This document shows positions 30,879-33,649 of a DNA stretch of 33,710 nucleotides, in pieces. Positions within the stretch are counted from its first letter, which is position 1. The number at the start of each line of letters is the position of its first letter. The notes beneath the pieces are model-generated. The model had not been told where the DNA came from, did not search any database, and worked only from the letters and a program-made list of their open reading frames with translations. The translations under genes were made by a program, and so were the position numbers. The stretch comes from Ignavibacteriales bacterium (GTDB lineage Bacteria > Bacteroidota > Ignavibacteria > Ignavibacteriales > Ignavibacteriaceae): positions 1-33,710 of the forward strand of contig JAGUYG010000112.1 in the NCBI GenBank assembly GCA_020061465.1. Reading direction: 5' to 3'.

Positions 30879-31991
30879 ATGTCAATGTTTAACTTAATAG
30901 AAGAATTCGATCACGAACAAGTGGTCTACTGCTCAAACAAAGAAGCGGGATTAAAAGCAATCGTAGCAATTCACAACACTACGTTAGGGCCTGCATTAGG
31001 CGGAACGCGCATGTGGAAATATCCCACCGATGAAGCTGCACTAAAAGATGTACTTAGACTTTCAAGAGGAATGACATACAAAGCTGCTATTTCCGGTTTA
31101 AATCTTGGTGGTGGTAAAGCTGTAATAATCGGAGATTCAGCAACGCAGAAAAATGAGCTGCTCCTCAGAACGTTCGGAAAGTTTGTTGAAGGATTAGCCG
31201 GAAGATACATCACTGCCGAAGACGTAGGCACTTCTGTGAAAGATATGGAATATGTTAGAATGGAAACAAAATATGTTACCGGAATTTCCAAAGCATTAGG
31301 CGGTTCGGGCGATCCGTCTCCTGTAACAGCGTACGGTGTATACGTAGGAATGAAAGCCTGCGCAAAATTCAGATGGGGGAGTGATTCGCTTAAAGGAAGA
31401 AAAATTGCTGTGCAGGGTGCCGGACAAGTTGCCCGTTATTTATGCGAACACTTGTATAACGAAGGCGCAGAAATTTATGTAACTGATATTATCGAGGCGA
31501 AAATTAAAAGAGTGCTGGAAACTGTTAAAGCCAAAGTTGTTAACCCTGAAGAAATTTATGATACCGATGCAGAAATTTTTTCGCCCAATGCACTTGGCGG
31601 AATAATAAACAATGAAACTATCGGACGATTGAATGCGGAAATAATTGCCGGCGGCGCTAACAATCAGCTCGAAGATGAGAAAGTGCACGGACCAAAGTTA
31701 TTAGAGAAAGATATACTCTATGCACCTGACTATGCTATTAACGCAGGAGGTTTAATAAATGTAGCTAATGAACTTGAAGGCTATAGACAAGACCGCGCCC
31801 TTAAGCAGGCAGAAAGCATATATGAAATAATTACAAGGGTATTAGAAATTTCAAAGCATGAAAATATTCCGACTTATGAAGCTTCGAACAAAATTGCAGA
31901 AGAAAGACTGCTTCATGTTGGCAGGATAAGTAATATTTATACCGGTAAATCATTTTTTTCCGGCAGACTTGGGGAGTTGATTAAGAAATAG
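30879..31991 (+). CDS. ldh: Leucine dehydrogenase-like amino acid dehydrogenase
   Basis: 370 aa, close to leucine/valine dehydrogenases (about 365 aa) and shorter than glutamate dehydrogenase. It deaminates branched-chain amino acids to 2-oxo acids with NAD+. It shows GPALGGTRMWKYP, the catalytic-lysine region LGGGKAVIIGD, TAEDVGTSVKDME, the nucleotide-binding GAGQVARYLCEHLYNEGA, and AGGANNQLED. GGGATC-like GGGAGATC precedes the ATG. Phenylalanine dehydrogenase is a possible alternative, since substrate specificity rests on few residues. It is flanked by non-coding DNA, with a terminator behind, and so forms a single-gene unit. Confidence 0.88.
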   Translation: MSMFNLIEEFDHEQVVYCSNKEAGLKAIVAIHNTTLGPALGGTRMWKYPTDEAALKDVLRLSRGMTYKAAISGLNLGGGKAVIIGDSATQKNELLLRTFGKFVEGLAGRYITAEDVGTSVKDMEYVRMETKYVTGISKALGGSGDPSPVTAYGVYVGMKACAKFRWGSDSLKGRKIAVQGAGQVARYLCEHLYNEGAEIYVTDIIEAKIKRVLETVKAKVVNPEEIYDTDAEIFSPNALGGIINNETIGRLNAEIIAGGANNQLEDEKVHGPKLLEKDILYAPDYAINAGGLINVANELEGYRQDRALKQAESIYEIITRVLEISKHENIPTYEASNKIAEERLLHVGRISNIYTGKSFFSGRLGELIKK

Positions 31992-32100: not shown

Positions 32101-32225
32101 TTCGATTTATCCAGCGTAGCGAACCCACCCCGCCCCTCCCTTTGGTAAAGGGAGGGTGGTTGCCCTTTTTTCTTTTAAGTGTGTCGTTCTCCCCTTCTCG
32201 GAAGGGGAGAAAAAGAGGGGTTCGC
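32101..32225. repeat. 125-bp palindromic element, copy A (direct repeat)
   Basis: It matches 33523-33649 almost base for base. Within it, GCGAACCC (32119-32126) and GGGTTCGC (32218-32225) are perfect 8-bp terminal inverted repeats. They bracket two 10-bp-stem hairpins: CCCTCCCTTT/AAAGGGAGGG (32134-32156) and TCTCCCCTTC/GAAGGGGAGA (32188-32210). The layout resembles a paired-REP or miniature inverted-repeat element. Confidence 0.8.
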
Positions 32226-32574
32226 CGAAATACGAACAACTTAAAATATTTCGCTCCTAACGGAGCTTGTGTTTTGTTACGATTTTTTGTTTCTACTAAT
32301 TTATCGCGCCTCTGGAGCTGAAGAACGTATGTGTTTGTTTTCTAACTCCTTTAGGAGTGACATATTAGTAGTAGTGAATAATTCCCAAAATTGCCAGAAC
32401 TCCGTTAGGAGTGACATATTGTTTTCTTGAAGGAATTGTTTAAATGGCTATCCAAAGGATCCAATAAGGAAAGCTTGAAATTTGTTTTGGTTATTCATGT
32501 CCGTTCACTAAAGTGAACGGAAATTGATAGAAGTTTAAACAAGAGGAAGAGAGAGAGAGGGTGGAACGTTTTTT
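32172..32574. repeat. Tandem unit 1 (403 bp)
   Basis: Repeated as unit 2 with high identity. Modules in order: TCTCCCCTTC hairpin, GCTCC/GGAGC (32253-32266), a degraded GCGCC/GGAGC, ACTCC/GGAGT twice (32345-32358, 32399-32412), GGCTA...AAGCTT split by a 20-nt insertion at 32451-32470, CCGTTCAC/GTGAACGG with TAAA loop (32501-32520), then a GA-rich stretch. Confidence 0.8.
32451..32470. repeat. 20-nt insertion of two mini-hairpins in unit 1
   Basis: Absent from unit 2, where GGCTA joins AAGCC directly to make a GGCT-AA-AGCC hairpin. The insert is two tandem mini-hairpins, TCC-AAA-GGA and TCC-AATAA-GGA, placed in the loop of the host hairpin. Confidence 0.65.
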
Positions 32575-32955
32575 CTTTTAAGTGTGTCGTTCTCCCCTTC
32601 TCGGAAGGGGAGAAGAAGAGGGGTTCGCCGAAATGCGAACAACTTAAAATATTTCGCTCCTAACGGAGCTTGTGTTTTATTACGATTTTTTGTTTCTACT
32701 AATTTTTCGCTCCTATGGAGCTGAAGAACGTATGTGTTTGCTTTCTAACTCCTTTAGGAGTGAAATTATTATAGAACTGATTACCCCTTAATTAACCTGA
32801 ACTCCGTTAGGAGTGACATATTGTTTTCTTGAAGGAATTGTTTAAATGGCTAAAGCCTGAAATTTGTTTTGGTTATTCATGTCCGTTCACTAAAGTGAAC
32901 GGAAATTGATAGAAATTAAAACAAGAGGAAGAAAGAGAGGGTGGAATGCTTTTTT
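32575..32955. repeat. Tandem unit 2 (381 bp)
   Basis: Second copy of the unit with the same module order. It has the intact GCTCC-TAT-GGAGC and GGCT-AA-AGCC hairpins that are altered in unit 1. The spacer between the two ACTCC/GGAGT hairpins (after 32760) is unrelated to that of unit 1, while the flanks are nearly identical. CCGTTCAC/GTGAACGG recurs at 32883-32902. Confidence 0.8.
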
Positions 32956-33010
32956 CTTTTAAGTGTGTCGTTCTCCCCTTCTCGGAAGGGGAGAAGAAGA
33001 GGGGTTCGCC
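32956..33010. repeat. Partial tandem unit 3
   Basis: Identical to the first ~55 bp of units 1 and 2, including the TCTCCCCTTC/GAAGGGGAGA hairpin. It breaks off right after the terminal GGGTTCGCC. The end of homology coincides with the end of the palindromic element, which supports that point as an element boundary. Confidence 0.75.
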
Positions 33011-33119
33011 TAATGACGATACACCCCACACAAGCCGCAAAATTTCCCAACCTAAAATATGCACTGCTACTTTTGTCTTTATGTTAGAAATATTAATTTG
33101 CAATCAAATACTTTTAATC

Positions 33120-33500
33120 ATGACTAAACTCTTCAACAAAAAGAAAGAACAAGAAAAACGCAGATACCTGAGGAAGAATATTACTGCAGCCGAAAAATTA
33201 GTATGGAAATATTTGAGAAAGAGACAAATTTGCGGAGAGCGCTTCCTTCGTCAATATAGCATCAAACACTACGTTGTAGATTTTTATTGTCCGAGATTAA
33301 GGCTAGCAGTAGAAATTGACGGCGAGACGCATTTTGAAGATGAAGCGGCAATTCAATATGATAAAGATAGGCAGGAAGAGATCGAATTACTAGGTATTCA
33401 ATTTCAAAGGTTTCGTAATGAAGAGGTGTTTCAAAATTTAGATCGAGTAATTGATACAATTGAAGCAAAGGTTAAAGAATTGCAAATTAAGAAAGAGTGA
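33120..33500 (+). CDS. DUF559 endonuclease-like protein
   Basis: 126 aa from the ATG at 33120. DUF559 proteins have the Vsr-like PD-(D/E)XK nuclease fold. A basic N-terminus (KKKEQEKRRYLRKN) and the helix ITAAEKLVWKYLRKR lead to FLRQYSIKHYVVDFYCP with Asp54, then LAVEIDGETHF with Glu65, Asp67 and His71, and a C-terminal IQFQRFRNEEV strand. These are the family's likely metal-site residues. The frame is open upstream through the repeats to 32946, but the protein-like part starts here. The gene lies 110 nt after a partial palindromic element and 22 nt before another, suggesting it travels with or acts on these repeats (inference). Confidence 0.85.
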   Translation: MTKLFNKKKEQEKRRYLRKNITAAEKLVWKYLRKRQICGERFLRQYSIKHYVVDFYCPRLRLAVEIDGETHFEDEAAIQYDKDRQEEIELLGIQFQRFRNEEVFQNLDRVIDTIEAKVKELQIKKE

Positions 33501-33522
33501 GGGATGTGGTCTATACTGAGAT

Positions 33523-33649
33523 TTCGATTTTGTACAGCGTAGTGAACCCACCCCGCCCCTCCCTTTGGTAAAGGGAGGGTGGTTACCCTTTTTTCTATTA
33601 AAGCGTGTCGATCTCCCCTTCTCGGAAGGGGAGAAGAAGAGGGGTTCGC
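33523..33649. repeat. 125-bp palindromic element, copy B (direct repeat)
   Basis: Same orientation and module order as copy A: (G)TGAACCC at 33542, both 10-bp hairpins, and GGGTTCGC at 33642-33649. The left terminal repeat has one mismatch. With copy A it brackets the tandem units and the DUF559 gene. The final ~60 nt of the window hold nothing recognisable. Confidence 0.8.

What the first reader, a model, noticed from the sequence alone, without database searches (positions are those of the whole stretch)
32101..33649. DUF559 nuclease gene bracketed by direct repeats of a palindromic element with terminal inverted repeats
Two ~125-bp copies in the same orientation flank a 1.5-kb block with tandem units and one gene, a PD-(D/E)XK-like DUF559 protein. 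Each copy has 8-bp terminal inverted repeats (GCGAACCC/GGGTTCGC) and two perfect 10-bp hairpins. Two further partial elements lie in between. A small nuclease next to palindromic repeats recalls RAYT/REP systems, but with an unrelated enzyme. A DUF559-driven repeat or mobile cassette would be new to my knowledge.
Basis: partly seen in the sequence, partly recalled or inferred. Interest (0 to 1): 0.68.

Follow-up and report, generated by a model that had tools for sequence, protein, structure and literature searches.

The report
Nuclease gene bracketed by palindromic repeats
A tiny DNA-cutting gene sits between two copies of a hairpin-forming repeat, and the same arrangement recurs in many unrelated bacteria, which suggests an undescribed kind of selfish DNA that spreads between genes and may help explain orphan bacterial repeats.

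Summary
Two full copies (32112-32235, 33535-33649; 94% identical) and two partial copies of a palindromic element with terminal inverted repeats bracket one DUF559 (PD-(D/E)XK) gene, 33120-33500. It is not a local oddity. In 80 genomes of the same family, 34 of 86 small DUF559 genes are bracketed by repeats (6 of 134 size-matched ORFs). GC-rich hairpins lie within 200 bp on both sides in 33 of 86 (1 of 287 control ORFs), in 11 of 16 cyanobacterial loci (0 of 23) and in 13 of 26 from other phyla (0 of 52). Bracketing copies are mostly direct (53:5), and the element's end motif follows the DUF559 subfamily. At one orthologous site relatives show no such element, element only, and element-gene-element, with two distinct DUF559 subfamilies. 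The closest solved structures include homing endonuclease I-Bth0305I. Best reading: a free-standing homing-type nuclease gene that invades gene ends between copies of its own palindromic element; cleavage and drive are inferred. Against specificity: small GIY-YIG genes, taken as a control, are also repeat-bracketed (33 of 56), several by tRNA ends, so the principle may be wider than DUF559. Ten searches of an open-access library showed no paper on it.

The parts
30879..31991 (+). host gene, Glu/Leu/Phe/Val dehydrogenase, after which the block sits
   Evidence: Pfam ELFV_dehydrog_N 1.9e-29; followed directly by a nusB-like ORF in 4 relatives
32112..32235 (+). element copy 1, full (left TIR, hairpin 1, spacer, hairpin 2, right TIR)
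32119..32126 (+). left TIR of copy 1, GCGAACCC
32134..32156 (+). hairpin 1 of copy 1
32187..32211 (+). hairpin 2 of copy 1
32218..32225 (+). right TIR of copy 1, GGGTTCGC
32166..32568 (+). tandem unit 1 (hairpin 2, right TIR and about 300 bp with other small palindromes)
   Evidence: direct repeats D2/D3, spacing 403; unit borders approximate
32554..32638 (+). partial element copy (spacer, hairpin 2, right TIR)
   Evidence: 91% identity
32569..32951 (+). tandem unit 2
   Evidence: D2 93%, D3 87%; unit borders approximate
32932..33019 (+). partial element copy (spacer, hairpin 2, right TIR)
   Evidence: 90% identity
33120..33500 (+). DUF559 nuclease gene, 126 aa
   Evidence: PF04480 6.1e-29; start chosen by the conserved N-terminus in alignments A2/A3; model pLDDT 91
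33535..33649 (+). element copy 2, full
   Evidence: 94% identity to copy 1
33542..33549 (+). left TIR of copy 2, GTGAACCC (one mismatch)
33557..33579 (+). hairpin 1 of copy 2
33611..33635 (+). hairpin 2 of copy 2
33642..33649 (+). right TIR of copy 2

Best explanation
A selfish nuclease cassette: element - DUF559 gene - element, both copies in direct orientation. The element is a TIR-closed pair of hairpins placed at gene ends. The gene encodes a small PD-(D/E)XK nuclease with the fold of the homing endonuclease I-Bth0305I and Vsr. Proposed cycle: the nuclease cuts a copy of its target that lacks the gene (a solo element or the gene end that receives it); recombinational repair from a gene-bearing cassette, with the element copies as homology arms, inserts the gene; recombination between the direct copies can later delete it and leave a solo element. 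SHOWN: anatomy, bracketing in several phyla, mostly direct orientation, absent/solo/occupied states at one orthologous site, change of the nuclease between closely similar flanks, element type following nuclease subfamily, fold and conserved acidic/His residues. INFERRED: the cut site, recombination as the copying step, self-propagation.
For: Bracketing by repeats of 50 bits or more in 34 of 86 DUF559 genes v 6 of 134 size-matched and 12 of 284 all control ORFs. Hairpins on both sides: family 33/86 v 1/287, Cyanobacteria 11/16 v 0/23, other phyla 13/26 v 0/52, Ignavibacteria outside the 80 genomes 5/16 v 1/39; on at least one side 69/86, 15/16, 25/26 and 14/16. Hairpin density in the family loci 6.5 per kb within 100 bp, 0.06-0.18 per kb at 1-4 kb. 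Direct:inverted 31:3 and 22:2. Palindrome sites within 500 bp of a DUF559 gene: 19 of 82 v 0.09 expected; 16 of 75 without this genome. Site between an exonuclease gene and purL: occupied in 4 genomes by two DUF559 subfamilies (33-40% identical between them), solo element in 2, neither in 6. G075/G076: flanking DNA about 87-92% identical up to the elements, DUF559 57% identical in protein. sufB-sufC: occupied in Sphingomonas, 330-470 bp closer together in 9 of the 14 other listed records. TIR type v subfamily, permutation p 5e-5. Fold: 3hrl Z 15.9, I-Bth0305I (3r3p) Z 12.0, Vsr Z 10.1; profile hit to 3r3p 3.5e-6. Invariant E25, D54, E65, D67, H71. In-frame stops in 7 of 90 genes fit decay of a selfish gene.
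Against: 52 of 86 DUF559 genes are not bracketed at 50 bits. Most listed palindromes of the type are not near a DUF559 gene (63 of 82), and an S. meliloti-type element has 1067 places in 261 plasmid records, so solo copies need action in trans or another mobiliser. GIY-YIG genes show even more bracketing (33 of 56). For the window itself no clean empty site exists: nusB, which follows the dehydrogenase in 4 relatives, lies on another contig and the window ends at the contig end. At the purL site the unoccupied genomes differ in more than the cassette: G035, G041 and G056 hold other palindromic repeats and G006 other sequence. Cleavage of the element is untested; a characterised DUF559 protein (VsrA of Caulobacter) is read by its authors as a mismatch-repair enzyme (PMC12907096).
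Confidence: 0.5

Rival explanations
1. Transposition: the element is a MITE of a minimal DNA transposon, and DUF559 (with or without host factors) is its transposase, cutting at the TIRs; solo elements are non-autonomous copies.
For: TIRs on the elements; many solo copies; in L205 and L207 the flanks are inverted copies (47 and 42 bits), as if the gene lay inside one element; TnsA shares the fold more distantly, Z 6.5.
Against: In 53 of the 58 loci bracketed at 50 bits the copies are direct, so the gene lies outside the TIR pair. No short target-site duplication recognised. The closest folds are homing and repair nucleases, not transposases.
Confidence: 0.2
2. Passive collecting: palindromic elements, spread by something else, accumulate at gene ends beside small dispensable genes; DUF559 is an ordinary repair or restriction-type nuclease that happens to be such a gene.
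For: Another small nuclease family, GIY-YIG, is also repeat-bracketed (33 of 56). Most listed element copies are solo. VsrA was read as a repair enzyme.
Against: Size-matched ORFs in the same neighbourhoods are rarely bracketed (6 of 134). Independent insertions on both sides would give direct and inverted pairs equally, but 53:5 was found. Element type follows DUF559 subfamily even within one genome (9 of 11 different-subfamily pairs differ).
Confidence: 0.15
3. Palindrome processing: DUF559 is a structure-specific nuclease that cuts hairpins or cruciforms formed by these elements, and is kept beside them as a local maintenance or regulatory pair.
For: Elements fold into a TIR-closed pair of hairpins; Holliday-junction resolvases share the fold at Z 7.3.
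Against: Does not by itself explain direct bracketing, unoccupied sites or replacement of the gene between similar flanks.
Confidence: 0.1

Closest known systems
Free-standing homing endonucleases, EDxHD/Vsr-like type (I-Bth0305I, PDB 3R3P)
   Same: Related nuclease domain by profile (3.5e-6) and fold (Z 12.0); presence/absence at a fixed site in relatives.
   Different: Not in an intron or intein; sits between copies of a palindromic intergenic element; the cut site is unknown.
REP/REPIN elements with RAYT (Y1 HUH) transposases
   Same: One nuclease gene flanked by palindromic repeats, solo copies elsewhere in the genome.
   Different: Enzyme is PD-(D/E)XK, not Y1/HUH; elements are about 90-125 bp TIR-closed hairpin pairs; flanking copies mostly direct.
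CGTC-tagged REPs (Di Nocera 2013, PMC3733652) and rhizobial intergenic mosaic elements
   Same: GC-rich palindromes in intergenic regions, abundant in alphaproteobacteria; alphaproteobacterial DUF559 genes carry GC-rich palindromes beside them. [quoted passage not shown]
   Different: Identity of the families was not tested: no published consensus was aligned here; the RIME likeness is from recall.
Vsr very-short-patch-repair endonucleases
   Same: Fold (Z 10.1); YcjD profile detects Vsr (PMC1189080 passages).
   Different: DUF559 is the family matched here; bracketing elements; no linked cytosine methylase was looked for.
MITEs (for example ERIC, Correia/NEMIS; recalled)
   Same: Short TIR-bearing intergenic elements.
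   Different: A nuclease gene is attached, mostly outside the TIR pair; a transposon with matching ends was not searched for beyond the fetched loci.

Membership tests
DUF559 (PF04480) | profile score above the curated cut-off | tested here: met
   100.5 bits v cut-off 20.6
DUF559 (PF04480) | conserved PD-(D/E)XK-type acidic and His residues | tested here: met
   E25, D54, E65, D67, H71 invariant in 29 and 33 aligned proteins
Free-standing homing endonuclease gene | nuclease domain of a homing family | tested here: met
   profile hit to 3r3p 3.5e-6; Z 12.0, rmsd 2.7, 96 aligned
Free-standing homing endonuclease gene | presence/absence at a fixed orthologous site | tested here: met
   4 occupied, 2 solo element, 6 neither, of 12 genomes; for relatives, not for the window's own site
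Free-standing homing endonuclease gene | cleaves the gene-less site and promotes its own transfer | not testable with these tools
   needs biochemistry or a two-plasmid assay
REP/RAYT system | Y1 (HUH) transposase beside the repeats | tested here: not met
   the gene of the block is DUF559
REP/RAYT system | GTAG or CGTC tetranucleotide at the palindrome base | tested here: inconclusive
   GTAG precedes the left TIR in both window copies but is not seen there in the element of the second DUF559 locus of this genome
MITE / insertion sequence | terminal inverted repeats | tested here: met
   8 bp in copy 1, one mismatch in copy 2
MITE / insertion sequence | target-site duplication | tested here: inconclusive
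   none recognised by eye at the window copies; 100-430 bp duplications of host-gene ends at some relatives
MITE / insertion sequence | transposase gene inside the TIR pair | tested here: not met
   window gene lies outside both TIR pairs; copies direct in 53 of 58 bracketed loci
Vsr mismatch-repair endonuclease | partner cytosine methylase / T-G mismatch cleavage | not tested
   no search made
CGTC-REP / RIME | match to the published consensus | not tested

The most novel reading that the evidence does not exclude
DUF559 nucleases are the missing mobilisers of many orphan palindromic intergenic repeats: a widespread class of minimal selfish element, element-nuclease-element, in Ignavibacteria, Cyanobacteria, Nitrospirae, Planctomycetes, Deinococcota and Proteobacteria. 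With GIY-YIG genes bracketed by duplicated tRNA ends as a parallel, homing-type nucleases would invade bacterial gene ends by carrying a duplicate of the end they hit.
Probability: 0.4. Interest if true: 0.9.

Novelty: new variant of a known kind. Interest (0 to 1): 0.8.

Why it matters
Small palindromic intergenic repeats are common in bacteria, and for some families no mobilising enzyme is known; the 2013 survey says so for CGTC REPs (PMC3733652, abstract). A nuclease gene found between direct copies of such elements in several phyla, with element type following nuclease subfamily, gives a concrete, testable candidate. It would also give a role to DUF559, a family usually called unknown or repair-like. 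It bears on annotation too: several DUF559 genes end inside an element.

Tried and rejected
Single-protein scan of genome contigs found no relative; an alignment of one subfamily did. A wider alignment was too diverse for the scan. A first palindrome pattern had the wrong loop length and found nothing; the corrected one is. An empty site for the tandem G044 locus was sought in 5 congeners; only short matches came back. A second orthologous site (helicase gene of G048) was found in only two genomes. An empty site for the window itself: relatives have dehydrogenase-nusB, but nusB is elsewhere in this genome. RNA families: only two sub-threshold matches, taken as chance. Defence library: weak partial matches to a methyl-directed restriction enzyme and Hhe, not taken as evidence of a defence role. 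E. coli ycjD is less clear than hoped: GC-rich hairpin elements lie only downstream (the upstream palindrome resembles one also present after sapF in an eef-bearing strain) and the alternative state at sapF-fabI is the eef operon, not a clean empty site. The GIY-YIG control did not behave as a neutral control and is reported as such. A protein tree was built but is not used for any claim. Subfamilies were assigned by N-terminal motifs written by me, with one remainder class, not by that tree; 47 of 90 genes had no or ambiguous TIR labels and were dropped from the permutation test. The grouping 'rest' mixed Ignavibacteria outside the 80 genomes with other phyla (18 of 42 v 1 of 91); one search splits it and its numbers are used.

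Full report
OBSERVATION. The block at the right end of the window is as described, with small corrections. Two full copies of an element (32112-32235 and 33535-33649) are 94% identical and in the same orientation. Each is left TIR - hairpin 1 - spacer - hairpin 2 - right TIR; the left TIR of copy 2 has one mismatch. Folded as single-stranded DNA, the TIRs close over the hairpins (z -4.65 and -4.44). Two partial copies (32554-32638, 32932-33019) lie in tandem units of about 403 and 381 bp that also carry other small palindromes. The gene is DUF559, PF04480, E 6.1e-29, best read as ATG 33120 to stop 33500 because relatives share its N-terminus. Eight GC hairpins occur in the last 1.6 kb v a mean of 0.02 in shuffles.

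THE SAME GENOME. The element is nearly confined to this locus: outside it, one partial copy on contig C8 and a weak 36-base match on C68. The only other small DUF559 gene (C32:2687-3007) is also bracketed by direct copies of an element of the same architecture but different sequence, with ACACCCC ends.

RELATIVES, WITH CONTROLS. PF04480 was sought in 80 genomes of the family. From the listing I took 90 small genes: 88 of about 85 bits or more with frames up to about 210 aa, plus the two of this genome. Eleven further fetched regions held weaker or fragmentary matches and were not scored. Comparing 600 bp up- and downstream (4 genes at contig ends dropped), repeats of 50 bits or more bracket 34 of 86 DUF559 genes, 12 of 284 other ORFs at least 1.2 kb away in the same loci, and 6 of 134 such ORFs of up to 200 aa. 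An independent hairpin count gives hairpins within 200 bp on both sides in 33 of 86 v 1 of 287 (Fisher 1e-22), on at least one side in 69 of 86, with density falling from 6.5 per kb within 100 bp to 0.06-0.18 per kb at 1-4 kb. In six single-contig genomes 8 of 14 genes are bracketed, so assembly is not the cause.

OTHER PHYLA. A scan of GTDB genomes with one subfamily alignment found 289 relatives, of which the best 80 were kept. Phylum labels are mine, from record titles or identity with the family's contigs. Bracketing at 50 bits: Ignavibacteria-type loci 16 of 35 v 7 of 81 controls (19 of these loci are identical to genes of the 80 genomes), Cyanobacteria 8 of 16 v 1 of 23, other phyla 7 of 26 v 0 of 52; three loci with short flanks dropped. 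Hairpins on both sides: Cyanobacteria 11 of 16 v 0 of 23; other phyla 13 of 26 v 0 of 52; Ignavibacteria outside the 80 genomes 5 of 16 v 1 of 39; on at least one side 15 of 16, 25 of 26 and 14 of 16. In the plasmid collection 31 records matched. Of 14 fetched, 11 have a counted hairpin within about 400 bp on at least one side and 5 on both, among them Sphingomonas, Shinella, Azospirillum lipoferum, Sinorhizobium, Methylobacterium and Deinococcus; the other three (A. brasilense, Picosynechococcus, E. coli) show GC-rich repeats by eye only. No control ORFs were run for these 14.

SHAPE OF THE CASSETTE. At 50 bits, repeats are direct in 31 of 34 family loci and 22 of 24 others (binomial 3e-11). 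In 12 of 31 directly bracketed genes the downstream repeat begins within 6 nt of the stop codon; in several the element itself supplies the stop, and in G002, G041 and G048 the upstream copy likewise abuts or supplies the stop of the preceding host gene. So the unit sits at gene ends. In L205 and L207 the flanking copies are inverted (47 and 42 bits, below the cut), a minority form that fits a transposon better.

ELEMENT FOLLOWS NUCLEASE. TIR motif and DUF559 subfamily are associated (43 labelled of 90 genes, permutation p 5e-5). In one genome, genes of different subfamilies have different TIRs in 9 of 11 pairs and genes of one subfamily the same TIR in 3 of 3. Related sequences count more than once in this test.

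MOVEMENT. DUF559 proteins 94% identical can have no shared flanks within 3.4 kb (L202/L221, different cyanobacteria), and similar flanks can hold different DUF559 proteins (listing cut in the middle). In G075/G076 the flanking DNA is about 87-92% identical up to the elements while the proteins between are 57% identical. At the site between an exonuclease gene and purL, 12 genomes keep both neighbours, G003 judged by its alignment to G005. Four carry a DUF559 gene between hairpins or elements (G005 from one subfamily; G003, G036, G039 from another). Two carry a solo element (full in G062; one imperfect hairpin in G037). Six have neither (G004, G006, G034, G035, G041, G056); of these G035, G041 and G056 hold other palindromic repeats, G035 also a Y1-transposase ORF, and G034 may keep a remnant. 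The other 18 of the 30 loci fetched for this gene show no purL start within the stretch held. In Sphingomonas the cassette lies between sufB and sufC; 14 other listed records (of 210 matched) match sufB and sufC in two pieces, 9 of them with the two genes 330-470 bp closer together; 5 Paracoccus records have something else between.

GENOME-WIDE DISTRIBUTION. Of 82 listed palindrome sites in 19 genomes (the listing was cut), 19 lie within 500 bp of a DUF559 gene v 0.09 expected, or 16 of 75 without this genome. Yet 63 do not, and an S. meliloti element has 1067 places in 261 plasmid records, 38 in one record. Solo elements are the majority.

THE ENZYME. AlphaFold model pLDDT 91. Best matches: 3hrl, an endonuclease-like protein that the DUF559 profile also finds (Z 15.9), homing endonuclease I-Bth0305I (Z 12.0), Vsr (Z 10.1 and 9.8), Holliday-junction resolvase (Z 7.3), TnsA (Z 6.5). 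A sequence profile finds the same first two. E25, D54, E65, D67 and H71 are invariant. A DUF559 protein, VsrA of Caulobacter, causes an SOS response when a cytosine methylase is missing (PMC12907096, abstract and one section read), so members can act on DNA in vivo; its authors favour mismatch repair.

A CONTROL THAT TURNED INTO A FINDING. Small standalone GIY-YIG genes of the same 80 genomes (61 picked by hand from a cut listing, 56 scored, 5 at contig ends dropped) are bracketed at 50 bits in 33 of 56, but have hairpins on both sides in only 8 of 56. Of 12 bracketed loci read by eye, four have duplicated tRNA 3' ends (L327, L330, L355, L356). A tRNA lies within 250 bp in 26 of 55 GIY-YIG loci and in none of 60 DUF559 loci scanned, of about 90 (read by eye). 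So bracketing by a duplicated target may be a general habit of homing-type nucleases, each with its own niche. This weakens any claim that bracketing is unique to DUF559 and supports the homing reading.

LITERATURE. Ten searches of open-access PMC text showed no paper linking DUF559 or YcjD to palindromic repeats. Of 14 papers that hold 'DUF559' I saw passages of three and the listing only of the rest. Passages read: PMC9403480 places a DUF559 gene in the EDxHD homing family; PMC12308824 reports DUF559 with a transposase in recombination hotspots of Legionella; PMC1189080 relates YcjD to Vsr; PMC12817139 reports ycjD where the eef operon is absent; PMC3733652 abstract, one section and passages. 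Subscription papers and preprints were not searchable, so prior description cannot be excluded.

VERDICT. The arrangement is real and recurrent. The homing-type cassette is the best reading (0.5); transposition, passive collecting and palindrome processing remain open. Nothing here shows cleavage or drive.

Noticed in passing
L330, L356, L355, L327 (GIY-YIG loci among L297-L356): Small standalone GIY-YIG nuclease genes bracketed by direct duplications of a tRNA 3' end plus terminator; a tRNA lies within 250 bp in 26 of 55 GIY-YIG loci.
   Followed up: partly
L068 (G044): Two identical DUF559 genes in tandem about 936-bp repeats, beside a Y1_Tnp (RAYT-type) gene.
   Followed up: partly
L271 (G035), exonuclease-purL site: The intergenic site that holds DUF559 cassettes in relatives holds a Y1_Tnp ORF with other palindromes here.
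   Followed up: partly
L155, L216, L088, L125: DUF559 genes flanked by diverged 100-430 bp duplications of the end of a host gene instead of, or besides, palindromic elements.
   Followed up: no
L286-L289 (E. coli sapF-fabI): ycjD (DUF559) with downstream hairpin elements or the eef efflux operon occupies this site; a region covering 80% or more of the ycjD query in 3363 of 5426 genomes.
   Followed up: partly
window 32245-32960: Tandem units between element copies carry further small palindromes (CTCCTAACGGAG / CTCCGTTAGGAG, GTCCGTTCACTAAAGTGAACGGA) of unknown family.
   Followed up: no
G000 C22:54908 v window 31991: Dehydrogenase and nusB, adjacent in four relatives, are unlinked in this genome; the window ends at the contig end just after element copy 2.
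   Followed up: partly
G017 contigs C2, C16, C88, C96, C105: Palindromic elements spaced 242-261 bp in doublets and triplets on contigs without a listed DUF559 gene, like small arrays.
   Followed up: no
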